From the IMG/VR virus record IMGVR_UViG_3300025655_000033, positions 1 to 64,000 of that record: a stretch of 64,000 nucleotides of DNA; one strand, 5' to 3'. Shown one piece after another: positions 8,209 through 55,535 of this stretch (its first letter is position 1; each line of letters opens with the position of its first letter). The DNA is from a virus. A program made the translations under genes and the position numbers. The notes beneath the pieces are model-generated. The model had not been told where the DNA came from. It did not search any database and worked only from the letters and a program-made list of their open reading frames with translations.

Positions 8209-9606
8209 ATGGCAGCAGCAATAGAAATATCTTACTTTAATTCGTTTTGGCTAAAACAGGTGCTTGATAGTGGAAGCAATCCTGTATGGCCAAATGGTTA
8301 TCCTTCTACAACTGGTTTTCCAGGAACTGCTGTTACTGGAGACAATAATTGGTTTATAGAAGAATCAAGAATTAGAGGAGGTTACAACAACACACAAGTG
8401 GACTTAGGTGTTAAAGCTTACATAGTAGAAGAAGAACCTAGGCAACAACGTAGATCAAACGCTTTAATATATTCTGGTATATTTAACTCTAGAACAGGTG
8501 TTAATAATACTAATCAGTTTTCTGTAGGTGAATCTATAACTAAATCAACTGATCCAGCAAATGGATCAATTCAAAAGTTATATGCTGAAGATACAAACTT
8601 AATAGTATTCCAAGAAAACAAAGTAAGTAGAGCTTTAATAGATAAAGACGCTATATACTCTGCTGAAGGAAACGCAGCTGTAACTTCAACTCAATTAGTT
8701 ATAGGGCAAATTGTTCCTTACGCTGGTAACTATGGTATTAGTAGAAACCCAGAAAGCTTTGCTGTCTATGGTTATCAAAAGTACTTTACAGATAAAGATA
8801 GAAACGCTGTTTTAAGACTCTCTATGGATGGTTTAACAGAAATATCATCTTATGGTATGCTTGATTATTTTAGAGACAATCTAAGCAGTATAGGAGAGTC
8901 AGGTAAAATAATAGGTGGTTATGATATTCATAATAAAAACTATACTTTATCTTTACAGAAAACACCAGCTTGGCAAGGTAATTCAGACGATGCTTCATCT
9001 TACGCTACTTTAACTTTTGATGAATTAGTTAAAGGTTGGAGTAGTTTTTACACCTATAAACCTACTTTTGTAACAAGTCTTAAAAACAAATTTTATAGTT
9101 TTAAAAATGGATCTATATACGAACACTATAGTAATCCAGGTGGAGATAATAGAGGTACTTTTTACGGATTATACGCTCCTTCAAATATAACTTTTGTATT
9201 TAATGATAATTCAAATGTTTCAAAAAATTTCCAAACTGTAAACTACGAAGGTGATAATGGATGGCAAGTAACTAGTTTCGTGTCTGACAATCAAAGATTT
9301 GATTACGTTAATAGTGGTTGGGTTAGTTATGATGATACAACAGCTCAAATACCAAGTTACAGTCAAACATATAATGATGGTGGAGTTATTTATAGATTAG
9401 GCTTTGATAGAAAAGAAAACAAGTACTTTGCAAACTTAATAAATAATAGTCCAGCTAGAGATGGTGAGGTTGTATGGGGTAATGAAATGTCTGGTATTAA
9501 AGGGTATTTTGCTACTGTTACTTTTTCAACTGACGCTATAACTGACGTAGGTGGTCCAAAAGAACTTTGGAGTGTTGGATCAAATTTTGTAGTATCTTCG
9601 TATTAA
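8209..9606 (+). CDS. Tail hub protein, second half
   Basis: A 465-residue beta-rich protein. Segments such as NWFIEESRIRGGYNN and SIQKLYAEDTNLIVFQENKV recur in tail-hub or stabilisation proteins of Bacteroidota phages, where I recall them in the same polypeptide as the N-terminal pattern of the preceding gene. The repeated aromatic/Gly strand pattern fits a beta-propeller. It is a virion tail component by context; the exact role is inferred. Confidence 0.6.
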   Translation: MAAAIEISYFNSFWLKQVLDSGSNPVWPNGYPSTTGFPGTAVTGDNNWFIEESRIRGGYNNTQVDLGVKAYIVEEEPRQQRRSNALIYSGIFNSRTGVNNTNQFSVGESITKSTDPANGSIQKLYAEDTNLIVFQENKVSRALIDKDAIYSAEGNAAVTSTQLVIGQIVPYAGNYGISRNPESFAVYGYQKYFTDKDRNAVLRLSMDGLTEISSYGMLDYFRDNLSSIGESGKIIGGYDIHNKNYTLSLQKTPAWQGNSDDASSYATLTFDELVKGWSSFYTYKPTFVTSLKNKFYSFKNGSIYEHYSNPGGDNRGTFYGLYAPSNITFVFNDNSNVSKNFQTVNYEGDNGWQVTSFVSDNQRFDYVNSGWVSYDDTTAQIPSYSQTYNDGGVIYRLGFDRKENKYFANLINNSPARDGEVVWGNEMSGIKGYFATVTFSTDAITDVGGPKELWSVGSNFVVSSY

Positions 9607-26976: not shown

Positions 26977-27708
26977 TTAAAGTGTTTGATTTAAAAAATA
27001 TTGTTCTGGATCGAAATCCTCTGATTTAAAAAAAAGCCTATAAGCATCGATTGCTTTTAAAACTTTATCTTCTCCTGATCTTAAAAACGCATCTGAGCAA
27101 TCAAATATACCTAATTGCAATGTGTTTTTATCTATCACTATGAATATCATTTCATAACCAAATAATTGGCTATATATGTAAGCTTGACTATCGTAGTTGT
27201 ATTTCTTAGCTGAGTATCTAAATTTAGATATGTCTCCACTAGTTTTAAGGTCTACAACTAGCTTTTGATTGTGGTTTATAATATCAGCTTTACCTTTCCA
27301 CATCTCACCATGTATCTCTTTAATACCTGGTACCTCATATTCATTGCCAACACTTCTTATAAGATCTTTACAAATATCATTGTTAAGCATCTTGCCAGTC
27401 ATAAGATCTATTTGATCAACTTCTTTTTGTAATAAATAAACTTCAGGATCTTCAAGCGCTTTAAAAGCGTTTGTGTTTCTACTACCTACATCGATAATTT
27501 TATACTTACCTAGTTTTTCAGGTTCTAGTATTGCTGTATGAAAATAACCACCAATAAGAAAAGCACTTATCATAGGTTGTCTTTCACCAAGTAACAAAGG
27601 GTTTGTAAGTAGCGTAGATATATCTGAGTTGCTTAGGTACTTTTTACCAAATTCACCGTAATAGTCTTCGTCGTTCTCTAGTTTTTTTAATACCTCTTTT
27701 TTTTTCAT
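26977..27708 (-). CDS. PD-(D/E)XK exonuclease, RecE-like (DUF3799 type)
   Basis: A 243-residue protein. It begins with YLSNSDISTLLTNP and FLIGGYFHTAILEPEK, the N-terminal hallmarks of RecE/Cas4-like nucleases (SxS...G...H). The catalytic core is GKADIINHNQKLVVDLKTS (D...DxK), followed by YDSQAYIYSQLFG, the conserved Q-Y motif. It likely resects double-stranded ends to give 3' single strands for the annealing protein encoded next to it. Stop and start of the pair overlap by one base. Confidence 0.85.
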   Translation of the reverse strand: MKKKEVLKKLENDEDYYGEFGKKYLSNSDISTLLTNPLLLGERQPMISAFLIGGYFHTAILEPEKLGKYKIIDVGSRNTNAFKALEDPEVYLLQKEVDQIDLMTGKMLNNDICKDLIRSVGNEYEVPGIKEIHGEMWKGKADIINHNQKLVVDLKTSGDISKFRYSAKKYNYDSQAYIYSQLFGYEMIFIVIDKNTLQLGIFDCSDAFLRSGEDKVLKAIDAYRLFFKSEDFDPEQYFLNQTL

Positions 27709-28262
27709 TATAATGTACTTAGTTCTTTTACTTGTGAAGCTGTAAGCGTATACTTAGATTTAATAGCATCTATGTTTCCACCTGATTTAACGTATTCTTT
27801 AGCTTTAATCAATTGATCTTTAGTAATAGCAACCTTAGCAGCGTAAGTTCTACCACTGTGATCATTAGTTGCATCGCTATCTTGCGTGTCATCTATTAAA
27901 AGTAAATTACCAAGGGAATATTTCTTCGCATAACTGGAAGCGCTACCAAACTGCTGTGGTACTTGCATACCTTTTTGAGCTAGATCAACACCAACTATAG
28001 ACTTAGCGGCTATAGACATACCACCTTCTGAATCCATAATAGTAGCAGTTGACTCTATAATAGGCATACCATCTATATTTACAAGTTGCTCATCAACAGT
28101 AAATAATACACCATACTTTTCGTTAAATGGTTTTAATGCTTCAAGTATATCTTCAGCTGATCTAAAGTTGTACTTACCAAAAGAATTGTATCTACTTTTT
28201 TTAGCCTTAAACTCTTTTTGGATTTTGCTTAATTTTTGATAAATGGTTAACATCTCTTTCAT
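27708..28262 (-). CDS. ERF-family single-strand annealing protein
   Basis: A 184-residue protein. N-terminal helices with KYNFRSAEDIL, then the hallmark ERF segment GSASSYAKKYSLGNLLLIDDTQDSDATN at about 110-137. ERF-type recombinases anneal complementary single strands. With the overlapping RecE-like nuclease it makes a two-component recombination system, probably for repair, concatemer formation or recircularisation. The C-terminal 45 residues are basic and helical. Confidence 0.88.
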   Translation of the reverse strand: MKEMLTIYQKLSKIQKEFKAKKSRYNSFGKYNFRSAEDILEALKPFNEKYGVLFTVDEQLVNIDGMPIIESTATIMDSEGGMSIAAKSIVGVDLAQKGMQVPQQFGSASSYAKKYSLGNLLLIDDTQDSDATNDHSGRTYAAKVAITKDQLIKAKEYVKSGGNIDAIKSKYTLTASQVKELSTL

Positions 28263-28310
28263 TTTTAAAGGAATTTAGTTATTATTATAATTACATATTT
28301 TTGCCTTAAT

Positions 28311-29075
28311 CTACAGATAGTCAATTACTTGCGATGGTTCTACGTTAGCAATTAACTTCTCTACAGCTTGCTTTTTAATCTCAGATATTCTAACGTAAGC
28401 ACTAGGTCCTTCGATGCCTAAAATATCTGCAATTTGATTTGCTGAATGCTTATCACAGTTTAATCCATAACTTAATCTAAGCACTTCAAACTCTCTTTCG
28501 TTTAAATGTTTTTTCAATAAACTAGTTAAGTATAAGTTTAATAAACCTATATTATATGGTTCAGACTGATCAGGTATTTGATGCATGGTGTTATCTTCAT
28601 CATCATCATTTATTTGCTCGTCAATACTAAGGAATATAGAATTAAAAAACATTGCAACCATTTTCTTATCTTTACCATTGTCTTTCCTAATTTCATTTAG
28701 TTTATGCTCTGGTATTCTAATATCTCCCCTGTTTATGTCTATGGCTCTTCTAATGGCTCCTTTTATTCGTTTAGACAGGAAAGACTTTAATGTTTTTTCC
28801 TCGTCTTCTGAGTTGTCTATTGTGTCCCATATTATTTTGTCAACAGCCTTAATCAATCCTAAACTTCCGTCTTGTATTAAATCTGTAATGTCCATAACAC
28901 CGGAAGCTTGTTGTGATGTTGAAAACTTCCTTGCTATGTTTTCTACTAAAGGCAAGAACTTAATTACAAGTTCGTCTCTAGTATACTCGTTAAATGATTT
29001 TTCGCCGACACGTTCAATTGAAGACTTTACATCTTCTTTATATCGTACGTAATTCTGAATGTTGTACTTTTTCAT
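28311..29075 (-). CDS. Phage-encoded RNA polymerase sigma factor (sigma-70 family)
   Basis: A 254-residue protein with sigma region 2 in the N-terminal half (LPLVENIARKF, DLIQDGSLGLIKAVDK, then the KGAIRRAID helix) and region 4 at the C-terminus (LNEREFEVLRLSYGL, NQIADILGI, VRISEIKKQAVEKL). A 40-residue insertion of charged residues separates them and region 3 is reduced, as in small alternative sigma factors. It should redirect host RNA polymerase to phage promoters; the AATACG-N10-GATAAT elements described here are the obvious candidates. The start overlaps the upstream HTH gene by 38 bases. Confidence 0.92.
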   Translation of the reverse strand: MKKYNIQNYVRYKEDVKSSIERVGEKSFNEYTRDELVIKFLPLVENIARKFSTSQQASGVMDITDLIQDGSLGLIKAVDKIIWDTIDNSEDEEKTLKSFLSKRIKGAIRRAIDINRGDIRIPEHKLNEIRKDNGKDKKMVAMFFNSIFLSIDEQINDDDEDNTMHQIPDQSEPYNIGLLNLYLTSLLKKHLNEREFEVLRLSYGLNCDKHSANQIADILGIEGPSAYVRISEIKKQAVEKLIANVEPSQVIDYL

Positions 29076-29691
29076 ATCCGTTGTTTAATAGTTCCTTCTC
29101 TTTTTTGAGTTCATTGGTCATATTACGGTATATGGTTCTTGGTGTACAATTCAATTGTTTAGCTAAATTAGCTACTGTTATTTTATCACCGCAGTCGTTT
29201 ATATATAACATAACATCGTAGATGTCTGACTCGGTAATTTTTTTACTTCTTCCTACAAGTTGTCCTACAATACTTAGTTTATCTGACAAATCTAGTTTAC
29301 AGTTATAATTAAATATAACTTTACGGGTCTTATTAGATGGATCTTGCTCTAAATCGCACATGCTTATTTCATACACGATTTTATTTAGTAAGTCATCATT
29401 TACAGTAAATGTAACAAATCCATTTTTAATATTGCATATAAATTTAGATAAATTTAAAAAATTATCAGGATCAAGTTTTGGATTAAGATACCATAGAACT
29501 AATAGATGCCACTTTAAAGACTTGTATGTATTGATCTTAGCTTTACTTCTAAATAGATCATAACACTCTCTGGTACCCTGTTCATAAAACCAACCCCACT
29601 CATAAGTTGAAGTTGGTTTATCTTTAACTGGTAACCTTCTGTAAAGTATTCTGCTTCGATGTAAATAATCGAGACGACGTTCGTATGACAT
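29038..29691 (-). CDS. Helix-turn-helix DNA-binding protein, possible regulator
   Basis: A 217-residue protein. The C-terminal part has a clear helix-turn-helix, KITVANLAKQLNCTPRTIYR at about residues 170-190. The N-terminal 140 residues are mixed and unassigned. The gene overlaps the sigma-factor start by 38 bases and is cotranscribed with it. Its own start codon (29691) lies inside a 44-bp inverted-repeat element (29686-29729), which suggests autoregulation. It could be a repressor, an activator or an origin-binding protein. Confidence 0.7.
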   Translation of the reverse strand: MSYERRLDYLHRSRILYRRLPVKDKPTSTYEWGWFYEQGTRECYDLFRSKAKINTYKSLKWHLLVLWYLNPKLDPDNFLNLSKFICNIKNGFVTFTVNDDLLNKIVYEISMCDLEQDPSNKTRKVIFNYNCKLDLSDKLSIVGQLVGRSKKITESDIYDVMLYINDCGDKITVANLAKQLNCTPRTIYRNMTNELKKEKELLNNGYEKVQHSELRTI

Positions 29692-29729
29692 TAGCCTATT
29701 ACCCCTTTATATTAACTACCTATTGTCAC
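29686..29729 (-). promoter_or_regulatory. Inverted-repeat operator-like element, copy A
   Basis: A 44-bp element with outer arms TGACATTAG and TATTGTCA and inner TAGCCTATTACCC. It is related base for base to copies at 36290-36332 and 37933-37975. It overlaps the start codon of the HTH gene, so a bound protein would block its translation start or transcription. Confidence 0.7.
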
Positions 29730-30113: not shown

Positions 30114-30284
30114 TTACTCACTATCAAAAAATTCCTCTACTGTATCTGTACCCCAGCCTGCTGCTAATGTTATTTTTCTTAAAAGTTCTACGTACTCTGT
30201 AAAGTGTATGTCTGAATGGTCTACTTCTACCGAGTATTTATACTCGTACTGTTCTATTGTTATTCTGTAAGGTTGTTTTTTCAT
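30114..30284 (-). CDS. Small hypothetical protein
   Basis: A 56-residue protein with a Tyr/Glu-rich N-terminal half (EQYEYKYSVEVDHSD) and an acidic C-terminus. Its start codon overlaps the stop of the YD-repeat gene, suggesting translational coupling. I recognise no domain. Confidence 0.5.
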   Translation of the reverse strand: MKKQPYRITIEQYEYKYSVEVDHSDIHFTEYVELLRKITLAAGWGTDTVEEFFDSE

Positions 30285-30694
30285 TATTTTTTGATTTTAA
30301 AATTGTGTCCTAATTTTTTTATTAGTTCTTCCATTGTGTACTCTTTTATTTCGAAGCCTCTCTTAACTCCGTCTGAGTTCTCGAATGTTAACCGATTACC
30401 ACTTGTGTCGTATGTGTATTTACTCCAATCTCCGTCTGAGTTCTCGGATGTTAACTCATTTCCGTTTGAATCATAGGTTGATTTACTCCAATAGCCTTTT
30501 GAATCCTCGAATGTTAACCGATTTCCGTTTGAATTGTAGGTGCATTTACTCAAATAGCCATCTGAGTTTTCAAATGTTAACTGTTTACCATTTGAATTGT
30601 AGGTGTATTGGTGGTTTTTGTTATACTTATACCTCAATACTCCTTTATTGTCTCTTAGTTCTAACTCCTCTGTTGTTCCGAATATGTTTTTCAT
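30284..30694 (-). CDS. YD-repeat (RHS-like) protein
   Basis: A 136-residue protein with five tandem repeats of about 20 residues, each roughly YNSNGN-LTFENSDG-WSK-T, the YD/RHS repeat pattern. YD repeats form beta-rich shells or spirals, usually in large secreted toxins or carbohydrate-binding proteins. Here only a short array is present, without a toxin domain. The nucleotide repeats are similar but not identical, so it has diverged. Among minus-strand early genes it could be an internal inhibitor or a structural scrap. Function unknown. Confidence 0.7.
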   Translation of the reverse strand: MKNIFGTTEELELRDNKGVLRYKYNKNHQYTYNSNGKQLTFENSDGYLSKCTYNSNGNRLTFEDSKGYWSKSTYDSNGNELTSENSDGDWSKYTYDTSGNRLTFENSDGVKRGFEIKEYTMEELIKKLGHNFKIKK

Positions 30695-31629: not shown

Positions 31630-31651
31630 TGTGTTTGTTTTAATTGTTATA

Positions 31652-31686
31652 TAATTATTATCTAGCTTATTGCGTATTGATTTTGT
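31652..31686 (-). promoter_or_regulatory. Phage promoter-like element, copy 1
   Basis: On the minus strand the element is AATACG, 10 bases, then GATAAT followed by A/T-rich DNA. It overlaps the stop codon of the DnaA-like gene and lies about 25 bases upstream of the KTSC gene, whose operon it would drive. It is the left-most and least perfect copy: the 3' part reads GATAATAATTATA instead of GATAATATATAT. Confidence 0.6.
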
Positions 31687-33975: not shown

Positions 33976-33998
33976 AGTTATAATATTTAATTGTTATA

Positions 33999-34032
33999 CA
34001 TATATTATCGTTAGTGCTACGTATTATTTTTG
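33999..34032 (-). promoter_or_regulatory. Phage promoter-like element, copy 2
   Basis: Minus-strand AATACG-N10-GATAATATAT with an A-rich upstream stretch. It overlaps the 3' end of the 34017-34247 gene and lies about 25 bases before the next start, at 33975. Confidence 0.7.
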
Positions 34033-34801: not shown

Positions 34802-34826
34802 AATTATATTGTTTTAATTATTATAC

Positions 34827-34860
34827 ATATATTATCTTAGGTGCTACGTATTATTATTGT
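34827..34860 (-). promoter_or_regulatory. Phage promoter-like element, copy 3
   Basis: Minus-strand AATACG-N10-GATAATATAT. It overlaps the stop of the small membrane-protein gene and precedes the start at 34801. Confidence 0.7.
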
Positions 34861-36125: not shown

Positions 36126-36158
36126 AGTTATATATTTTAAGTTATTAATTAATGTATA

Positions 36159-36192
36159 TTTATATTATCAATACTATAACGTATTATTATTG
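36159..36192 (-). promoter_or_regulatory. Phage promoter-like element, copy 4
   Basis: Minus-strand AATACG-N10-GATAATATA, upstream of the start at 36125. The 10-base spacer is a different sequence from other copies, so only the flanking hexamers are conserved. Confidence 0.7.
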
Positions 36193-36289: not shown

Positions 36290-36332
36290 TGACATTAGCT
36301 AGTTAAATAGTAGGGTAACAGGCTATTGTCAC
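36290..36332 (-). promoter_or_regulatory. Inverted-repeat operator-like element, copy B
   Basis: A 43-bp element (plus strand TGACATTAG ... GGCTATTGTCAC) related to copies A and C. It overlaps the stop of the small gene at 36329-36439 and lies about 98 bases upstream of promoter copy 4. Confidence 0.68.
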
Positions 36333-36453: not shown

Positions 36454-36490
36454 TATATATATTATCTTATGGTGTACGTATTATTTTTGT
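36454..36490 (-). promoter_or_regulatory. Phage promoter-like element, copy 5
   Basis: Minus-strand AATACG-N10-GATAATATATATATA, with ACAAAAAT immediately upstream. It precedes the start at 36439. Confidence 0.72.
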
Positions 36491-36509: not shown

Positions 36510-36740
36510 TTAAGAGATAATTTCCCTTAACGCTACTGGAACACTTGTTGAAGAAGTATAGCTTTTATATTTAATAAAGCAAGGCATCACTTCGAGTTTC
36601 GCTTGCATAATTTTATACGCTTCGTCGTGATTGTAAGTTACTTCTTTTCCACTTTTGAATTTCACTTTAATAATAGTGTTAGAGCCAATAAGTGATTTTC
36701 TAATTAAGAATCTTTTTGAGTTTAAAGTTGAATTTTGCAT
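36510..36740 (-). CDS. Small protein, paralog 1 of a tandem pair
   Basis: A 76-residue basic protein containing KRFLIRKSLIGSNTIIKVKFKSGKEVTYNHDEAYKIM and ending in a SYTSSTSVP segment. It is clearly homologous to the 80-residue protein at 37241-37483, with about two thirds of residues identical over the core, so one arose by duplication. Start context AAATAACTATG; promoter copy 6 lies about 45 bases upstream. Function unknown. Confidence 0.62.
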   Translation of the reverse strand: MQNSTLNSKRFLIRKSLIGSNTIIKVKFKSGKEVTYNHDEAYKIMQAKLEVMPCFIKYKSYTSSTSVPVALREIIS

Positions 36741-36783
36741 AGTTATTTAATTTAAGTTATTAATTATTATTTTTTAGTTACAT

Positions 36784-36817
36784 ATATATTATCTTGTAGC
36801 GAACGTATTATTTTTGT
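36784..36817 (-). promoter_or_regulatory. Phage promoter-like element, copy 6
   Basis: Minus-strand AATACG-N10-GATAATATATAT; upstream of the paralog-1 gene start at 36740. A T-rich stretch separates it from the start. Confidence 0.72.
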
Positions 36818-36907: not shown

Positions 36908-36943
36908 TTATATATTATCTTAGTAGCAGCGTATTACTTTTGT
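36908..36943 (-). promoter_or_regulatory. Phage promoter-like element, copy 7 (no ORF directly downstream)
   Basis: Minus-strand AATACG-N10-GATAATATATA. About 90 bases separate it from copy 6 and no reading frame is visible in that gap, so it may drive a leader or a short RNA. Confidence 0.66.
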
Positions 36944-37154: not shown

Positions 37155-37167
37155 AATTATTTATTTG

Positions 37168-37202
37168 TATATATTATCTGAAGTTAAACGTATTCTTTTT
37201 GT
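37168..37202 (-). promoter_or_regulatory. Phage promoter-like element, copy 8
   Basis: Minus-strand AATACG-N10-GATAATATA; precedes the start at 37154. Its upstream flank carries the GTGAGGT-type extension seen in copies 7, 9 and 10. Confidence 0.7.
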
Positions 37203-37240: not shown

Positions 37241-37483
37241 CTAAGAGACTGATTTGTCCCTTAGCACTGTTGGTATTGAAGTACTTGATGTATATGATTT
37301 GTATTTGATGAAGCATGGCATTGTATCAAGCTTGTCCTTCATGATTTCATATGCTGCATCATGGTTGTATTCATATTGCTTACCTGATTTGAATGTGACT
37401 TTGATGATCGTGTTTGTACCGATTAGAGATTTTCTGATTAAGAATCTTTTGCTTTCCATAACTTTTTGAGTTGAATTTGACAT
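37241..37483 (-). CDS. Small protein, paralog 2 of a tandem pair
   Basis: An 80-residue basic protein with KRFLIRKSLIGTNTIIKVTFKSGKQYEYNHDAAYEIM and CFIKYKSYTSSTSIP, closely matching the gene at 36510-36740. The start sits in AACAATTATG. Two promoter copies lie upstream. The pair may be small DNA- or protein-binding modules; the function is unknown. Confidence 0.62.
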   Translation of the reverse strand: MSNSTQKVMESKRFLIRKSLIGTNTIIKVTFKSGKQYEYNHDAAYEIMKDKLDTMPCFIKYKSYTSSTSIPTVLRDKSVS

Positions 37484-37527
37484 AATTGTTTGATTTAAAT
37501 TTATATTAATTATTAATTATTTATTAT

Positions 37528-37563
37528 ATATATATTATCTATATGCAAGCGTATTTTTTTTGT
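37528..37563 (-). promoter_or_regulatory. Phage promoter-like element, copy 9
   Basis: Minus-strand AATACG-N10-GATAATATATATA, about 45 bases upstream of the 37483 start. Confidence 0.72.
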
Positions 37564-37611
37564 TCGCAGTCAAAATGCTCAACAATACTCGTGAGGTTGC
37601 TTCGCTGCTTA

Positions 37612-37648
37612 CATATATATTATCTACTCGCAAGCGTATTTATCTTGT
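37612..37648 (-). promoter_or_regulatory. Phage promoter-like element, copy 10
   Basis: Minus-strand AATACG-N10-GATAATATATATA, 85 bases upstream of copy 9. The two are tandem, suggesting additive promoter strength for the right end of the minus-strand early region. Confidence 0.7.
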
Positions 37649-37840
37649 AACGCACATACTGGAATCAAAACGCGCAGTAATAGTCGTGAGGTTGTTTGTC
37701 AACTAGTATATCTCCAGGAAAAAAGCTAAAAGCTAGGGGTATTTCAACGTAAAAGGCAAAACATAAAACGCAAATCATATAAAACACGGGGATCCCGGTC
37801 ATTTTGAAACGCAAAAGGTTTTTGATTGATGTTGTAGAAA

Positions 37841-37932: not shown

Positions 37933-37975
37933 TGACATTAGGCTGTTATATTAATGGGTAATAGGCTATTGTCAC
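37933..37975 (+). promoter_or_regulatory. Inverted-repeat operator-like element, copy C
   Basis: Plus-strand TGACATTAG at one end and GGCTATTGTCAC at the other. It ends 5 bases before the AAAATACG of the plus-strand promoter-like element, so a protein bound there would touch that promoter directly. Confidence 0.68.
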
Positions 37976-37976
37976 A

Positions 37977-38010
37977 CTGTAAAATACGATGCTTTCGTGT
38001 GAATATATAA
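37977..38010 (+). promoter_or_regulatory. Plus-strand promoter-like element driving the fibre operon
   Basis: AATACG (37983-37988), exactly 10 bases, then GTGAATATATAA, compared with GATAATATATAT in minus-strand copies. It is the only near-consensus copy in the plus orientation and lies 24 bases before the first gene of the fibre cassette. This supports a shared sigma specificity for early accessory genes and fibres. Confidence 0.68.
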
Positions 38011-38033
38011 AGTATACAAAAAAACACTAAAAA

Positions 38034-38129
38034 ATGGCAGCAAACTTAGGAAACGAGGCAGTTACAGAGATGTATTTAGGAAGCGAGACGGTTACAGCTG
38101 TGTATTTAGGTACAGAACAAGTATTATAA
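38034..38129 (+). CDS. Short fibre-leading repeat protein
   Basis: A 31-residue protein made of units like EMYLGSETVTAVYLGTEQV, i.e. tandem YLGxExVxAVYLG repeats. Such repeats occur in phage tail proteins as short beta strands, and a related segment (KLGSTSINKIYFGSNFVWP) appears in the 43727 gene. It is the first gene after the plus-strand promoter-like element. Possibly a fibre-associated peptide. Confidence 0.5.
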   Translation: MAANLGNEAVTEMYLGSETVTAVYLGTEQVL

Positions 38130-44004: not shown

Positions 44005-45195
44005 ATGACAATAAATGTAACTTTAAAAGCTTCTGGAATAGACTCAGGCCCTTTTTCAATTTATCAAGATTCTGATAATTTTGCTACAGCTCTTGCAACT
44101 GGTGTCACTACTAATTTATTAACAATAGGATTTGAAGTGGATGCAAATATAAATACAAAATTTGTAAAAGTTTTTAGCGAATCAAGCTGCAACGCTGTAG
44201 CGATGGTAAGCGCTAAATTTGCCGATACAACTCCTTCGGTTGTTTCTTCAACTGTTGCTACTATTCCAAATGGCAACATAGCTAAATACGTTACAACAGC
44301 AACGGATAATAAAGATGGAATTATTGTTTCAGACGGCGGAAATACATTTATTTCTGTAGATACTGGCGATACTTTTGTTAATAATGCAGAGATGACTAGC
44401 GTAGATGCTAGATGTGTTACTTATGATTCTGTTTCTAGTAAATTTTTTGTTATAGGATCTATAAATAATGAATGGTGGGAAGTAACCATATCAGGAGCGA
44501 CAGTTACTGTTACTCCGCAGACAGCATCTTTACCTGGGTCGCAAAGAGGTTCAGCATTTTTTCACAATGGAGTTCTTTATATAAAAGATTTATTGGGTGT
44601 ATATAGATCTGAAGATTTAATTACTTTTGTAAAAGTTGCAAATTTTGATTTTACACCTACAAGTTCACAATATACGCAGGCAAAATCTTTTGCTGGTTAC
44701 GCAAAAACAGTTTTTTGTGCTGATAATAGAAATGGTTTATATAGATCTACAGATAATGGTTTGAATTGGAGTAAATTAACAATTCGTCCAAATCCAATTG
44801 AAGTTCAAATAGATCAAGACGGCAGGGTTTTTCTTTTAAGTAGTGATCCAGGCTTCGGTACTCAATTGCTTTATTCGGATGATCTTGGTTCAACGTGGTT
44901 GCTTTATGATGGTTCTACTAATTTACAGCAGCCATTTGAAATGAATAAATATGGAAGATTATGGTTTCTTACAAAAAACCCCGGTAACGGCTCTAGATCT
45001 TTAGCATATAAAATTGATGTAGTGAGTTCATCTACGGAAACATTGTTGCCAGACACTAATTTAGCAACGCAGCCAGCTAGCTCATATACTGATTTTTCAA
45101 AATATTCAATATTTTCTTGTAAGGATAGAACGTTTTTAATGGGTCAAAGCGGTTCAAATACGCTTATAATAAAAAATATAATAGCATATACCTAA
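44005..45195 (+). CDS. Tail-associated BNR/Asp-box beta-propeller protein
   Basis: A 396-residue protein. Its first 65 residues form a beta-rich attachment domain. From about 100 onward it has repeated Asp-box/BNR-like motifs (for example GLYRSTDNGLNWSKL and LLYSDDLGSTWLLY), as in sialidase-type propellers used for carbohydrate binding or cleavage. Classical sialidase catalytic Arg/Tyr/Glu positions are not clearly visible, so binding is safer to assume than hydrolysis. Independent fibre tip or receptor-binding module. Confidence 0.68.
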   Translation: MTINVTLKASGIDSGPFSIYQDSDNFATALATGVTTNLLTIGFEVDANINTKFVKVFSESSCNAVAMVSAKFADTTPSVVSSTVATIPNGNIAKYVTTATDNKDGIIVSDGGNTFISVDTGDTFVNNAEMTSVDARCVTYDSVSSKFFVIGSINNEWWEVTISGATVTVTPQTASLPGSQRGSAFFHNGVLYIKDLLGVYRSEDLITFVKVANFDFTPTSSQYTQAKSFAGYAKTVFCADNRNGLYRSTDNGLNWSKLTIRPNPIEVQIDQDGRVFLLSSDPGFGTQLLYSDDLGSTWLLYDGSTNLQQPFEMNKYGRLWFLTKNPGNGSRSLAYKIDVVSSSTETLLPDTNLATQPASSYTDFSKYSIFSCKDRTFLMGQSGSNTLIIKNIIAYT

Positions 45196-45246
45196 TTAAA
45201 AACCCATTAAACCAAGTAATAATAATATATAACTAACAAAAAATAA

Positions 45247-48200
45247 ATGGCTACAACTAAAGTATCTAAAGGACTTATAAAAGACGGTGCCGTAACTATA
45301 GAAAAGTTAAACAGCGCACTAGTAGTTACAGAGGCTGAAGGTATAGTAAATAACGATAACGATATTACGGTTCCTACTTCGGCTGCTGTAAAAAACTATG
45401 TTGATAGTTCAGTTGTTGGTGGATTAATATATCAAGGAGCGTATGATGCTTCTACAAATACGCCAGTTCTTGACAGCAGAGGCACTCAGATAGCTGTTAC
45501 TCAAGGTTGGACATATACGGTTACAGTGGACGGAACGTTTTATGGTGAAACGGTTAGAATAGGTGATGTTTTAATTGCCGAAACAGATTTAGCTGCTGGT
45601 ACAGGGGCTTTAACTGATTGGACTACGGTTCAAAGTAATATTGATTTAGCTACAGCTGGTACTGATGCCACAGCTGTAAGAGGTTTAGCTGGTTTTGACG
45701 CGGACAATTTTACTGTTGCCAATGGATTTGTAAACTTAAAAGTAGGTGATATTATACCTTCTAATATTGTGCAGTCTATAGTCGCTGGAAGTGGAATAAC
45801 AGTGGACAACACTGATCCTGAAAATCCTATTGTAACAAACACTGCTCCAGACCAAACTGTTGTAATTACGGGAACAGGTGGAGCAACAGTAACAGGTACA
45901 TATCCTAGTTTTAATATAGATACTACTGATGCTACCGGGGTGGATAGCATAATTGCTGGGACAAGTATAAGTATAGATAATACAGATCCAGCTAATCCTA
46001 TAGTAAATAATACAGACCCTGATCAAACAGTTGTTTTAAATCAAGGTAATAATATAACTATAACAGGTACGTACCCTAGCTTCACTATAGCTGCCGCAGA
46101 TGCACCAGCTCAATTAGTTACTTCCGTTAATACACAGGTTGGAGCAGTTGTATTGGATACTGATGATATAGCTGAAGGTACTACAAACCTTTATGATAAA
46201 ACTGTTGTGATTACGGGTTCTGGAGGTGCTACAATAACTGGAAATTATCCTAATTTTAATATAGACACTACAGATGCTACTGGAGTAGACAGCGTAGTTG
46301 CTGGCACAAATGTTACCGTAGATAATACAGACCCTAAAAATCCTATAGTAAGTGCATCTGGAAATCCAATACCAGTATCTGAAGAAGGTGTGCAGGTTAC
46401 GCCAAGCGTTGCTTCATTTAACTTTACTGGCACAGGTGTTACCGCTACAGCTGTTGGAAACGATGTTACTGTAAATGTTGCACAAGCACAATCGGTTAGT
46501 AACTTAGTTTATGATGTAAGAAACCAAACAGGTACTGAAATACCAGCTGGTTCTGCAGTATATATTGTTGGAGGCTCTGGTGCTAGTGATCACGTAAATG
46601 TTGTTTTAGCATTAGCTGATAACGATGAGCATTCATCTAAGACATTTGGTATAACATCAGTTGCAATACCTGATAATTCAATTGGACCAGTAACACTAGA
46701 GGGTTTAATTGAAGGTATTGATACTGATTTATGGAATAATGGTGATACATTATGGTTATCGCCAACGGTTCCAGGTGGTATTCAAAATACTATACCTCCT
46801 ACTCCAGCCCACGCTGTATTTTTAGGCTATGCTGTTAGAATACAACAAAACAACGGATCTATATTTGTTAAAATACAAAATGGTCCAGAATTAAGCGAAT
46901 TACACGATGTACTTATAACTAACGTACAAAACAACCAAACCATAACTTGGGATACTACTAATAGTTATTGGAAAAATACAAATATAGCTAATTCAGTTAC
47001 AGGTGCTAATAGTACTTTTATAAATACTTCTACAGATGTAACAACTGGGGCAGTTACTATAACTTCTTCATTAAATGCCACAGGCACACCAGGATCTACT
47101 AATTTTTTAAGAGGTGATGACACTTGGTCTACCGCTGTAACAAGCATAACTGCTGGCACAGGTTTAGATGGTGGCACTATAACTACAACTGGAACATTTG
47201 ATTTATCAAATACTGCTGTAACACCTGGCACCTATACAAATGCAAATATAACAGTTGACCAACAAGGTAGGATTACTTTGGCGTCAAATGGTGATCCAGG
47301 CGGCGTAACTTCATTCACAGCTTCTAATGGCACTTTTATAACGCTAACGCCTAATACTACACAATCCGGTGCAGCAACCATTACTGCTGATCTATCGGCT
47401 TCTGGGACTGCAGATTCAACTACGTTCTTACGCGGTGATAACCAATGGGTGACAGTTGCTGGTACAACATATGATTATTCTAGTGCACAATCTGGAAGTG
47501 ATGTAGATTTAAACTTAATACCTTCTACTGGTACAACTGATACAGTTAAGCTAGTTGCTGGTTCTGGAGTTACTATTACTGATGACGGTAGTAACAATGT
47601 AACTATTGCTGCGTCATCTTCGAGTTCAATTGCTAAAGATGATTTTGTAGGTGATGGTACAACACAAGCTTTTGCACTTTCTGTAACACCATTCTCTACG
47701 TTATTTACAAGTGTTTATATTGCAGGTGTATACCAAGAAAAAGAAACATACTCAATAACTGATAGTACACTTACGTTTACTACGGCTCCTCCTGATACGG
47801 CTTCAATAGAGGTTATGTCGGTAGTTGTTTCAAATATAACTCCTGGTTCAAATACAATTACAAGGAATGATTTTACTGGAACTGGTAGTCAAACAGATTA
47901 CACGTTATCAGTTGCCCCATCAAGTATTAATTTTGTTGACGTATATGTAAGTGGTGCATATCAAAATAAAGATGGTTTTAGTATTGTAGGTACAACACTA
48001 TCTTTTTCTGAAGCTCCAGCAAGTGGCGACGAAATAGAGGTGATGATTATATCTAACCTTTCTGTGTTAGATCCTGTAACTTCTGTTAATGGTCAAACAG
48101 GAGCTGTAATTATAGATATACCTGTAGATTCAGTAAATGGTCAAACAGGAGCAGTTTCTACTAATTACGATGCTCAAGTTATTTCCGCTAGTACTACTGC

Positions 48201-48438
48201 TGTAAAAAATACAGTTTATGTGCTAACGGCTGATCTAACTTTGGCACTACCTGCATTACCCACAAATGGTGATTCAATTAAAATAAGTAACTTATCGGGT
48301 GTTGCCACTTGTATATTAGGGGCTAATGGTAGTTTAATAATGGGTGTTGCGTCAGATTTAACTTTAGATACGCCTTCTGCATCTTTTGAGTTAATTTACT
48401 CTGGAGCAACAAAAGGTTGGGTAATAATAGGATTATAA
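45247..48438 (+). CDS. Large tail fibre protein
   Basis: A 1063-residue protein beginning MATTKVSKGLIKDGAVTIEKLNSALV, then long Thr/Asn/Gly-rich beta-repeats such as TAPDQTVVITGTGGATVTGTYPSFNI that match the 41145 fibre. Blocks with FVGDGTTQAFALSVTPFSTLFTSVYIAGVYQEKETY recur near the C-terminus, as do TSVNGQTGAV linkers. It is the longest fibre in the cassette and probably extends from the tail hub. Several sections duplicate sequences from the 860-residue fibre. Confidence 0.75.
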   Translation: MATTKVSKGLIKDGAVTIEKLNSALVVTEAEGIVNNDNDITVPTSAAVKNYVDSSVVGGLIYQGAYDASTNTPVLDSRGTQIAVTQGWTYTVTVDGTFYGETVRIGDVLIAETDLAAGTGALTDWTTVQSNIDLATAGTDATAVRGLAGFDADNFTVANGFVNLKVGDIIPSNIVQSIVAGSGITVDNTDPENPIVTNTAPDQTVVITGTGGATVTGTYPSFNIDTTDATGVDSIIAGTSISIDNTDPANPIVNNTDPDQTVVLNQGNNITITGTYPSFTIAAADAPAQLVTSVNTQVGAVVLDTDDIAEGTTNLYDKTVVITGSGGATITGNYPNFNIDTTDATGVDSVVAGTNVTVDNTDPKNPIVSASGNPIPVSEEGVQVTPSVASFNFTGTGVTATAVGNDVTVNVAQAQSVSNLVYDVRNQTGTEIPAGSAVYIVGGSGASDHVNVVLALADNDEHSSKTFGITSVAIPDNSIGPVTLEGLIEGIDTDLWNNGDTLWLSPTVPGGIQNTIPPTPAHAVFLGYAVRIQQNNGSIFVKIQNGPELSELHDVLITNVQNNQTITWDTTNSYWKNTNIANSVTGANSTFINTSTDVTTGAVTITSSLNATGTPGSTNFLRGDDTWSTAVTSITAGTGLDGGTITTTGTFDLSNTAVTPGTYTNANITVDQQGRITLASNGDPGGVTSFTASNGTFITLTPNTTQSGAATITADLSASGTADSTTFLRGDNQWVTVAGTTYDYSSAQSGSDVDLNLIPSTGTTDTVKLVAGSGVTITDDGSNNVTIAASSSSSIAKDDFVGDGTTQAFALSVTPFSTLFTSVYIAGVYQEKETYSITDSTLTFTTAPPDTASIEVMSVVVSNITPGSNTITRNDFTGTGSQTDYTLSVAPSSINFVDVYVSGAYQNKDGFSIVGTTLSFSEAPASGDEIEVMIISNLSVLDPVTSVNGQTGAVIIDIPVDSVNGQTGAVSTNYDAQVISASTTAVKNTVYVLTADLTLALPALPTNGDSIKISNLSGVATCILGANGSLIMGVASDLTLDTPSASFELIYSGATKGWVIIGL

Positions 48439-53574: not shown

Positions 53575-53615
53575 AACGCAGTATCAAGATTATTTTTATT
53601 ACTTAAAAAAACTAA

Positions 53616-53650
53616 AAAATACGTAATCTTATAACTATTAACAATAAACC
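53616..53650 (+). promoter_or_regulatory. Degenerate promoter-like element before the chaperonin operon
   Basis: AATACG followed by 10 bases and then ACTATTAACAATA. The first hexamer matches the other copies, the second half poorly. It lies 8 bases before the small gene at 53658, in an 83-base gap, so a weaker relative of the phage promoter is possible but not established. Confidence 0.4.
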
Positions 53651-53657
53651 AAAACCA

Positions 53658-53948
53658 ATGACACTTTTTTACCGCACTCATTCGTGGAGTAGTGAACCAC
53701 AAATTACCGATGAAACCAAAAAGTTATGGAGGCATATAGCTGAAAAAACTAACTGGAGAATCACCCAATTACCAAACGGTTTTTTTCAAACCGAATACCA
53801 AGATCTAGAAAAAGAAGATACTTGGAACGACGTAACCAGAAGAGAAACAGTTGCTGGCGCTGAAGCTGCTATTGATTCAACAGTAGAGCATTACGCTAAA
53901 AAGCTGGAATTCTTAGATGGACCTAAAGTCGTTAAGACCTTTAAATAA
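53658..53948 (+). CDS. Hypothetical protein conserved near phage chaperonins
   Basis: A 96-residue protein: WRHIAEKTNWRITQLPNGFFQTEYQD near the middle and a helical, acidic C-terminus (AAIDSTVEHYAKKLEFLDGPKVVKTF). I associate this sequence style with small proteins in marine phage genomes, often next to nucleotide or protein-folding genes. It may be part of the groEL-groES operon. Function unknown. Confidence 0.58.
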   Translation: MTLFYRTHSWSSEPQITDETKKLWRHIAEKTNWRITQLPNGFFQTEYQDLEKEDTWNDVTRRETVAGAEAAIDSTVEHYAKKLEFLDGPKVVKTFK

Positions 53949-53978: not shown

Positions 53979-55535
53979 ATGTCAGACGCAATTGTCAAGA
54001 ACCTAAGTTTCGGTAACGAAGCTAAGGACAAAGTATTTGAAGGTATTACAAAACTCACAAAAGCCGTTAGCTCCACGCTCGGGGCTAGCGGTAAATGTGT
54101 GATGCTAGAAGATGGAAATGGAAGACCAATCATAACTAAAGACGGTGTAACAGTAGCAGATAGTATTATACTATTAGATCCTGTTGAAAATATGGGGGCT
54201 ACACTTTTAAAAGAAGCTGCTAGAAAAACCGTAAGTGAAGCGGGGGACGGTACAACAACCGCAACTGTATTAGCACACGCTATATTAACTGAAGCTTACA
54301 ATGTAGCTGATAAGATTAGCTCAAGAGATTTAAAAATCGGTATAGACAACGCTGTTGAGAAAGTAGTTAAATACTTAGAATCAATTTCAGTTAATATACA
54401 AGGAGATATGATAGATCAAATAGCTACTATATCTACTAACAACGATGCAGAACTTGGTAAATTAATTGGTGATGCTTTTAGATCTGTTGATGAAACAGGT
54501 GTAGTTATGATGGAAACATCGTCAGATGGTACTACAGCAGTAGAAATAGTTGACGGAGTACAATACAACAAAGGGCTAACGAACTCACATTTTGTTACAA
54601 GCAAAAGCCAAAGAGTTGCTGAATTAGAAAATCCTTATGTATTATTAGTTGAATCACCAATTGATAATATAAGACAAATTCAAAGCGTGCTAGAGTTTGT
54701 TATAAAAGGTAATAAGTCTTTACTTGTAATCGCGGACGTAGACCAACCAGTACTTGCAACTTTAGCAATGAATAAAGTCAAAGGTAATTTAAAGATTAAT
54801 GTTATCAATGCGCCAACATACGGTGTAGCTAAAAAAGAAACATTAGATGATCTTGCAATGCTAACTGGTGCTACTATTATAAACGAAGACTTAGGAGATG
54901 ATTTAGATTTAATTAATCCTCAATACCTAGGTAATTGTATAAAAAGTGTAACTACAGACGAAGAAACAATATTACAAGTTGGAGAAGTTTCAGAAGAGGT
55001 TCAAAATACTATAAAAGGTATTAAAGAAAAACTTGTTACAACTAAAGAGCCTTACGAAATAGTAAAGCTTGAAAAAAGATTAGCAAGACTAGCAGCTAAA
55101 ATAGCTATAGTAAAAGTAGGTGCTAATTCAGAAATAGAATTAAAAGAAAAGAAAGATAGAGTTGAAGATGCTATCTGCGCAACTAAAGCCGCAATCAAAG
55201 AAGGTATTGTACCTGGTGGTGGAATTGCCCTGTTAAACGCATCGGAAACAGTTAAAGCTAATACAATAGGTGAAGAAGCGCTGCTAGAGGCTATTAAGGC
55301 GCCATTTAAGACCATTTTAGAAAATGCAAGTATAGAATACCAAGAATCTAAAAGAGGCAAAGGAATGGGTTTAAATGTGATAACTGGTAAAAAGGTTAAT
55401 ATGATCAAACACGGGATTATTGATCCACTACTAGTTACTAAAAGTGCACTTAGAAACGCTGCTTCAGTTGCTACAACTATTTTATCTACGGATTGTGTAA
55501 TTAATAACTTAAGGATTAATGAAGGCAATAGGTAG
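53979..55535 (+). CDS. groEL: Chaperonin GroEL
   Basis: A 518-residue GroEL. The ATP site is intact: KDGVTVAD (Asp55), GDGTTTATVLA (Asp90) and a VEDAICATKAAIKEGIVPGGGIALL segment with the catalytic Asp of the equatorial domain. The intermediate and apical regions follow the usual order. Compared with the 548-residue E. coli protein the C-terminal Gly-Gly-Met tail is absent; the protein ends DCVINNLRINEGNR. It folds phage capsid or internal proteins. The gene overlaps groES by 17 bases. Confidence 0.93.
   Translation: MSDAIVKNLSFGNEAKDKVFEGITKLTKAVSSTLGASGKCVMLEDGNGRPIITKDGVTVADSIILLDPVENMGATLLKEAARKTVSEAGDGTTTATVLAHAILTEAYNVADKISSRDLKIGIDNAVEKVVKYLESISVNIQGDMIDQIATISTNNDAELGKLIGDAFRSVDETGVVMMETSSDGTTAVEIVDGVQYNKGLTNSHFVTSKSQRVAELENPYVLLVESPIDNIRQIQSVLEFVIKGNKSLLVIADVDQPVLATLAMNKVKGNLKINVINAPTYGVAKKETLDDLAMLTGATIINEDLGDDLDLINPQYLGNCIKSVTTDEETILQVGEVSEEVQNTIKGIKEKLVTTKEPYEIVKLEKRLARLAAKIAIVKVGANSEIELKEKKDRVEDAICATKAAIKEGIVPGGGIALLNASETVKANTIGEEALLEAIKAPFKTILENASIEYQESKRGKGMGLNVITGKKVNMIKHGIIDPLLVTKSALRNAASVATTILSTDCVINNLRINEGNR

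What the first reader, a model, noticed from the sequence alone, without database searches (positions are those of the whole stretch)
37977..38010. The same two-box element occurs once in the plus orientation, before the tail-fibre cassette
AATACG and GTGAATATATAA stand 10 bases apart in the only large intergenic region, 24 bases before the first fibre-cassette gene. If real, one sigma factor would switch on both the accessory minus-strand genes and the fibre operon.
Basis: seen in the sequence. Interest (0 to 1): 0.7.

Follow-up and report, generated by a model that had tools for sequence, protein, structure and literature searches.

The report
Phage late-type promoter, misread match
The spot in front of the phage's fibre genes looks like a real start signal for transcription, but of a different type from the ten minus-strand signals it was compared with; this second type recurs across many related uncultured viruses.

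Summary
The letters are as described: AATACG-N10-GTGAATATATAA at 37983-38010, 24 bases before the first cassette ORF. But it is not an eleventh copy of the minus-strand element. From 346 related sites that element is three boxes, TTACAAAcTAAATACGA-N9-GATAATATA. Under its matrix the ten minus copies rank 1-10 in the window (25-38 bits) and the plus site scores -26.9, a chance level. In most relatives the same divergent junction carries another promoter: (G/T)TAAA-N17-RATAAT with TG upstream of the -10, just after a conserved palindrome. The plus site fits this class (TGTAAA 37978, 17-bp spacer, TGT-GAATAT 37998-38006; 18.1 bits with its own lineage left out). AATACG merely spans the end of its -35 box and the spacer; of 47 junction promoters found, only two near-identical ones carry it (plus a third close relative, further upstream). 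The class also sits before other late genes and directly behind the phage sigma gene in 21 of 30 loci, and both classes were absent from 8 named relatives in which no sigma gene was found. Most likely it is a late-type promoter read by host polymerase with the phage sigma (inferred). In most relatives the predicted start falls on the ATG, implying leaderless mRNA.

The parts
37978..37984 (+). -35 box TGTAAAA of the class-2 (late-type) promoter
   Evidence: conserved in aligned relatives as (G/T)TAAA(A/T)
37998..38006 (+). TGT plus -10 hexamer GAATAT, 17 bp from the -35 hexamer 37978-37983; predicted transcript start about 38012-38014
   Evidence: 18.1 bits with the class-2 matrix, window lineage left out of training
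37983..37988 (+).
   Evidence: replaced in L245/L249; among 47 junction promoters only in L246 and L247; also in L248, 528 bases upstream of its 84-aa gene
37933..37974 (.). palindrome TGACATTAGGCTGTTA...GTAATAGGCTATTGTCA ending 3 bp before the -35; candidate operator
   Evidence: palindrome 2-11 bp upstream of the -35 in 27 of 47 junctions
38034..38129 (+). first cassette ORF (31 aa), similar ORF at the same place in L245
38133..38387 (+). 84-aa cassette gene used to find the junction in relatives
28286..28315 (-). class-2 promoter directly behind the sigma gene, before ERF-type recombinase gene 27708-28262
   Evidence: 20.2 bits; same place in 21 of 30 sigma loci
45195..45224 (+). class-2 promoter before ORF 45247-48438
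   Evidence: 22.6 bits
8175..8204 (+). class-2 promoter before ORF 8209-9606 (structural protein)
   Evidence: 13.4 bits; similar element before this gene in relatives
53602..53631 (+). weaker class-2 candidate before ORF 53658-53948
   Evidence: 12.6 bits
28311..29075 (-). phage sigma factor, 254 aa, regions 2 and 4
29038..29691 (-). HTH protein, 217 aa, upstream of and overlapping the sigma gene; candidate binder of the palindrome
29686..29728 (.). second palindrome, over the start codon of the HTH gene
   Evidence: palindrome at the HTH gene start in 29 of 29 loci with that gene
36290..36331 (.). third palindrome copy, between minus-strand genes
37613..37640 (-). array-class promoter, strongest copy
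   Evidence: 37.6 bits
37528..37555 (-). array-class promoter
37167..37194 (-). array-class promoter
36908..36935 (-). array-class promoter
36782..36809 (-). array-class promoter
36455..36482 (-). array-class promoter
36158..36185 (-). array-class promoter
34825..34852 (-). array-class promoter
33998..34025 (-). array-class promoter
31651..31678 (-). array-class promoter, altered third box but intact TTACAAA

Best explanation
The site is the promoter of the plus-strand fibre cassette, of a second ('class-2', late-type) promoter class of this phage group: -35 TGTAAA (37978-37983), 17-bp spacer, TG upstream of a RATAAT-type -10 (here GAATAT, 38001-38006), start about 38013, 21-base leader. Shown by sequence comparison: the class exists, recurs at the same divergent junction in relatives, before other late genes and behind the sigma gene, and is distinct from the minus-strand array. 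Inferred: array promoters are used first and lead into the HTH-sigma operon; the phage sigma then directs host core polymerase to class-2 promoters, turning on replication genes (28315) and the late plus-strand genes (37978, 45195, 8175, perhaps 53602); the HTH protein binds the palindrome at its own gene and beside the fibre promoter, setting timing or strength. AATACG is a coincidence in this sub-lineage.
For: The class-2 matrix, trained on 25 deduplicated junction promoters without the window lineage, gives the site 18.1 bits (training members 11.4-28.0); the window's best three hits are 45195 (22.6), 28315 minus (20.2) and this site, all intergenic before genes. Independent places: behind the sigma gene in 21 of 30 loci; before homologues of ORF 8209 (exact GTRATAAT in 15 of the 20 IMG/VR loci whose gene start was covered, near matches in 4, none in 1, counted by eye); 16 of 23 and 26 of 36 hits lie upstream of genes in two other locus sets. 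Alignment with L245: TGTAAAA-N12-GTGTRARTATATA kept, AATACG not. The sigma has regions 2 and 4, as a -35/-10 promoter at 17 bp needs. Exact class-2 pattern in 30 of 31 records (30 array-bearing plus the window's own, 1 without), 0 of 8 named relatives in which no sigma was found. No TTG-TAnnTTTG host-type promoter before any gene in the window.
Against: No transcript data. The -10 here (GAATAT) departs from RATAAT, and the exact class-2 pattern misses this site. 22 of 69 junction loci gave no class-2 hit above 10 bits within 220 bases; at least one training member (L251) is probably false. Array promoters, not class 2, stand behind the sigma gene in 2 of 30 loci, and neither in 7. L248 keeps the whole 30-base element including AATACG, so a role for that box in this sub-lineage is not excluded. 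Two records with arrays show no sigma gene (G031, G049, arrays near contig ends), and G016 and G017 likewise.
Confidence: 0.65

Rival explanations
1. One sigma, two architectures: the phage sigma reads both classes through the shared RATAAT-like -10; array promoters add ACAAA and AATACGA boxes for an activator, class-2 promoters use a -35.
For: Shared -10; both classes absent from 8 named relatives without detected sigma; class 2 and array swap places behind the sigma gene.
Against: Array promoters precede the sigma gene, so something must read them before sigma is made; different upstream boxes. Relatedness alone could make sigma and both classes co-occur.
Confidence: 0.3
2. One reading: the plus site is a true copy of the minus-strand element.
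For: Exact AATACG(A) at exactly 10 bp; preserved in L246-L248.
Against: -26.9 bits under the array matrix, no ACAAA box, GTGAAT for GATAAT; box not conserved in L245/L249 or in the other junction promoters; of 30 array-bearing relatives only one has a match to the variant at up to 2 mismatches, and that is an ordinary array copy.
Confidence: 0.04
3. Class 2 is read by a host sigma and the phage sigma serves the array.
For: No direct test separates this; arrays lie on the sigma's strand in nearly all records.
Against: Class 2 lacks the flavobacterial TAnnTTTG -7 box (PMC9723704 passages); class 2 was not found in relatives without sigma.
Confidence: 0.2
4. No promoter here; resemblance is chance in A+T-rich intergenic DNA.
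For: One of 6 random windows reached 16.8 bits.
Against: Synteny, palindrome and spacing conserved over dozens of loci.
Confidence: 0.04

Closest known systems
Phage 7-11 late promoters and their sigma SaPh711_gp47 (PMC8948821; abstract and passages seen)
   Same: Phage-encoded sigma; two-part late promoter with a GTAA-type upstream box (GTAAtg-(16)-aCTA) before late genes
   Different: Different -10; dependence shown by experiment there, only inferred here; no array class or palindrome mentioned in what I read
Sigma-28 (FliA) promoters, TAAAGTTT-n11-GCCGATAA (PMC2859248; passages seen)
   Same: TAAA upstream box and GATAA-like -10; the phage sigma's best PDB sequence match is Aquifex FliA
   Different: 17 rather than 18 bases between TAAA and (G/R)ATAA; no GCC before it
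T4 middle promoters with a MotA box (recalled)
   Same: An activator box replacing the -35 in front of a -10 would be a model for the array class
   Different: No MotA homologue was sought; sequences differ
Flavobacterium sigma-A promoters, TAnnTTTG at -12 to -5 (PMC9723704; passages seen)
   Same: Likely host lineage of this phage group
   Different: Neither phage class carries TAnnTTTG

Membership tests
   GTGAAT; A18 and T19 are 99-100% in 346 sites (sites chosen with up to 2 mismatches, so this is partly by selection)
   CACACTGTAA instead
   kept only in the closest relatives L246-L248
Class-2 late-type promoter of this phage group | (G/T)TAAA -35, 17-bp spacer, TG upstream of the -10 | tested here: met
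Class-2 late-type promoter of this phage group | RATAAT -10 | tested here: inconclusive
   GAATAT; total score 18.1 bits, but the exact pattern misses the site
Class-2 late-type promoter of this phage group | position at the divergent junction behind the palindrome | tested here: met
Promoter dependent on a phage sigma factor | phage encodes a sigma with regions 2 and 4 | tested here: met
   (Pfam region 4 slightly under its cut-off)
Promoter dependent on a phage sigma factor | transcription in vitro by the sigma holoenzyme | not testable with these tools
   none
Sigma-28 (FliA) promoter | TAAAGTTT-n11-GCCGATAA | tested here: not met
   consensus
Bacteroidetes sigma-A promoter | TAnnTTTG -7 box | tested here: not met
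T7-type single-subunit polymerase promoter | phage encodes a PF00940 polymerase | tested here: inconclusive
   0 of 31 records, but no control genome rang either

The most novel reading that the evidence does not exclude
A widespread group of uncultured viruses related to Flavobacteriia phages runs on one phage sigma that decodes two promoter architectures sharing a -10, tied together by a new HTH regulator (no PDB fold match) that binds a 43-bp palindrome over its own start codon and beside the late promoter, and starts its late operon with leaderless mRNA.
Probability: 0.25. Interest if true: 0.6.

Novelty: new member of a known kind. Interest (0 to 1): 0.4.

Why it matters
It corrects a false link (one element for both gene sets) and gives instead two separable promoter classes, a sigma and a candidate regulator site with explicit coordinates, for a virus group well represented in IMG/VR whose transcription I found no description of. 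The predicted start on the ATG in most relatives gives a direct test of leaderless late translation in phages of hosts that do not rely on Shine-Dalgarno sequences.

Tried and rejected
T7-like promoter idea: AATACGA recalls the T7 promoter start (recalled), but no PF00940 polymerase was found (control silent). Host-type TTG-N-TAnnTTTG promoters: none before genes in the window. A virion polymerase in the 2084-aa protein: no convincing PDB match, no Pfam match, no DxDxD motif in predicted genes. RNA-hairpin reading of the palindrome: the outer TGACA/TGTCA arms hardly vary (the search pattern favoured that) and inner pairing is patchy, which fits a protein site at least as well as a conserved hairpin; no formal covariation count was made. 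Variant GTGAATATATAA as a second form of the array class: absent from relatives.

Full report
What the window is. The window is 64,000 of 67,201 bases of one IMG/VR virus record. A structural protein (637-2082) is closest to phages of Flavobacterium, Cellulophaga and Maribacter and to one spring-water podovirus record, all under 60% identical. Minus-strand genes run from about 37,480 down to 19,087 (small accessory genes, then an HTH protein, a sigma factor, ERF, primase/helicase, ribonucleotide reductase). Plus-strand genes run outward from 38,034.

The observation. AATACG-N10-GTGAATATATAA is there and unique. The ten minus-strand copies are real: 11 matches against 0.82 expected, of which the plus site is the worst, with 3 mismatches.

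The minus-strand element. In 30 of those records, chosen because they hold it, there are 1 to 19 copies at up to 2 mismatches, nearly all on one strand, against 0-1 per strand for the reversed pattern. Stacking 346 distinct sites shows a third box upstream and a purine 12 bases after the G of GATAAT: TTACAAAcTAAATACGA-N9-GATAATATATaT(G/A). With that purine as +1 (inferred), GATAAT sits at -12 to -7 and AATACGA at -28 to -22. All ten window copies carry some form of the ACAAA box.

The plus site under that model. A 42-position matrix from 235 deduplicated sites puts the ten minus copies at ranks 1-10 of all positions in the window (25.2-37.6 bits), the next position at 7.0, and the plus site at -26.9; 274 to 317 positions per random 64-kb strand score at least as high. 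Pseudocounts are low, so invariant positions weigh heavily; without the upstream box the plus site scores -1.5 where the ten copies score 18.8-31.1.

The junction in relatives. Relative L245 (fibre gene 65% identical) aligns across the junction: TGTAAAA, twelve variable bases, GTGTRARTATATA, then AGTATAC are kept, AATACG is not, while its minus-strand promoters are of the array type, (A/G)ACACGA-N9-GATAATA. The 84-aa cassette gene found 69 loci. Most have array promoters facing away on the far side and, before the gene, (G/T)TAAA-N-TGTRA. A matrix from 25 deduplicated members, window lineage excluded, scores the window site 18.1; training members score 11.4-28.0. 47 of 69 loci have a hit above 10 bits within 220 bases; 22 do not. 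AATACG lies inside the element in only L246 and L247, which are nearly identical to the window; L248 (84-aa gene 81% identical) has the identical 30 bases 528 bases upstream of its gene.

Independent places for class 2. In the window the matrix also finds 45195 plus (22.6), 28315 minus (20.2), 8175 plus (13.4) and 53602 plus (12.6), each intergenic and before a gene; of 12 hits above 10, these four and the plus site are intergenic before a gene, one more is intergenic on the wrong strand, and six are coding, while 6.4% of the window is intergenic. One of six random windows reached 16.8, so the two weakest need confirmation. In structural-region loci 16 of 23 hits above 15 lie upstream of genes (10 hits in shuffles), in array loci 26 of 36 (3 in shuffles). 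Before homologues of ORF 8209, exact GTRATAAT stands in 15 of 20 IMG/VR loci whose start was covered, with near matches in 4 and none in 1 (my count). Behind the sigma gene class 2 stands in 21 of 30 loci, the array type in 2, neither in 7 (the window is one of the 30, and one record supplies two).

Sigma and co-occurrence. The sigma gene (28311-29075) matches sigma-70 region 2 and, just under cut-off, region 4, a PHROG of sigma factors, and FliA best among solved chains. A model (mean pLDDT 76) has both end domains with a poorly predicted middle and aligns along its length with sigma-A chains, with low overall TM-scores. It is present in 28 of 30 array-bearing records besides the window's own. 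Eight named relatives (Panino, MW202828, two elemo phages, four Cellulophaga phages) gave no sigma match, no convincing array (one 2-mismatch hit) and no exact class-2 match, against 30 of 31 other records (the reversed control matched 7 times in those 31 and 0 times in the 8). Relatedness could explain part of this, and two fragments (G031, G049) have arrays without a sigma found.

Leader. With +1 twelve bases after the first base of the -10, the predicted start is the A of the ATG or one base before in 18 of 26 deduplicated junction promoters (34 of 47 undeduplicated). Leaderless mRNAs are rare in Flavobacterium psychrophilum, 5.5% (PMC9723704, passage seen). In the window the leader would be 21 bases, because a 31-aa ORF stands first.

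Palindrome. A 42-43 bp palindrome, TGACAnTAG...CTAnTGTCA, occurs three times in the window. It ends 2-11 bp before the class-2 -35 in 27 of 47 junctions and lies at the start of the HTH gene, over its start codon in nearly all, in 29 of 29 loci that have that gene. The HTH protein has HTH Pfam matches, mostly weak (HTH_11 in 18 of 29 members), and no PDB fold match. That it binds the palindrome is inferred from this placement.

Verdict. The spot is a promoter of the fibre cassette, but of a different class from the minus-strand array. Searches of the open-access library for a description of these promoters found none (listings only, apart from the passages cited); subscription papers are mostly not held.

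Noticed in passing
29686-29728, 36290-36331, 37933-37974: A conserved 42-43 bp palindrome, near the class-2 promoter or over the start codon of the HTH gene; 179 distinct pattern matches in the loci held, some of them chance.
   Followed up: partly
29038-29691: 217-aa HTH protein conserved upstream of the phage sigma gene; no solved structure or named family beyond HTH matches.
   Followed up: partly
37500-37720: Two diverged tandem units of about 85 bases, each with an array promoter, and related copies elsewhere in the array region (self-matches).
   Followed up: no
36510-36740 and 37241-37483: Two similar small minus-strand ORFs, apparently a duplicated gene with its promoter (self-match).
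   Followed up: no
30284-30694: Minus-strand ORF with a repeated DNA unit encoding short repeats, reminiscent of YD-type repeats (read by eye, not searched).
   Followed up: no
53979-55535: GroEL-type chaperonin gene (Pfam Cpn60_TCP1), as also annotated in the elemo and spring-water relatives.
   Followed up: no
L224 and L239 (same record G024, 129,537 bases): One record carries two sigma genes and about twice the usual length; possibly two phage genomes or a duplicated assembly.
   Followed up: no
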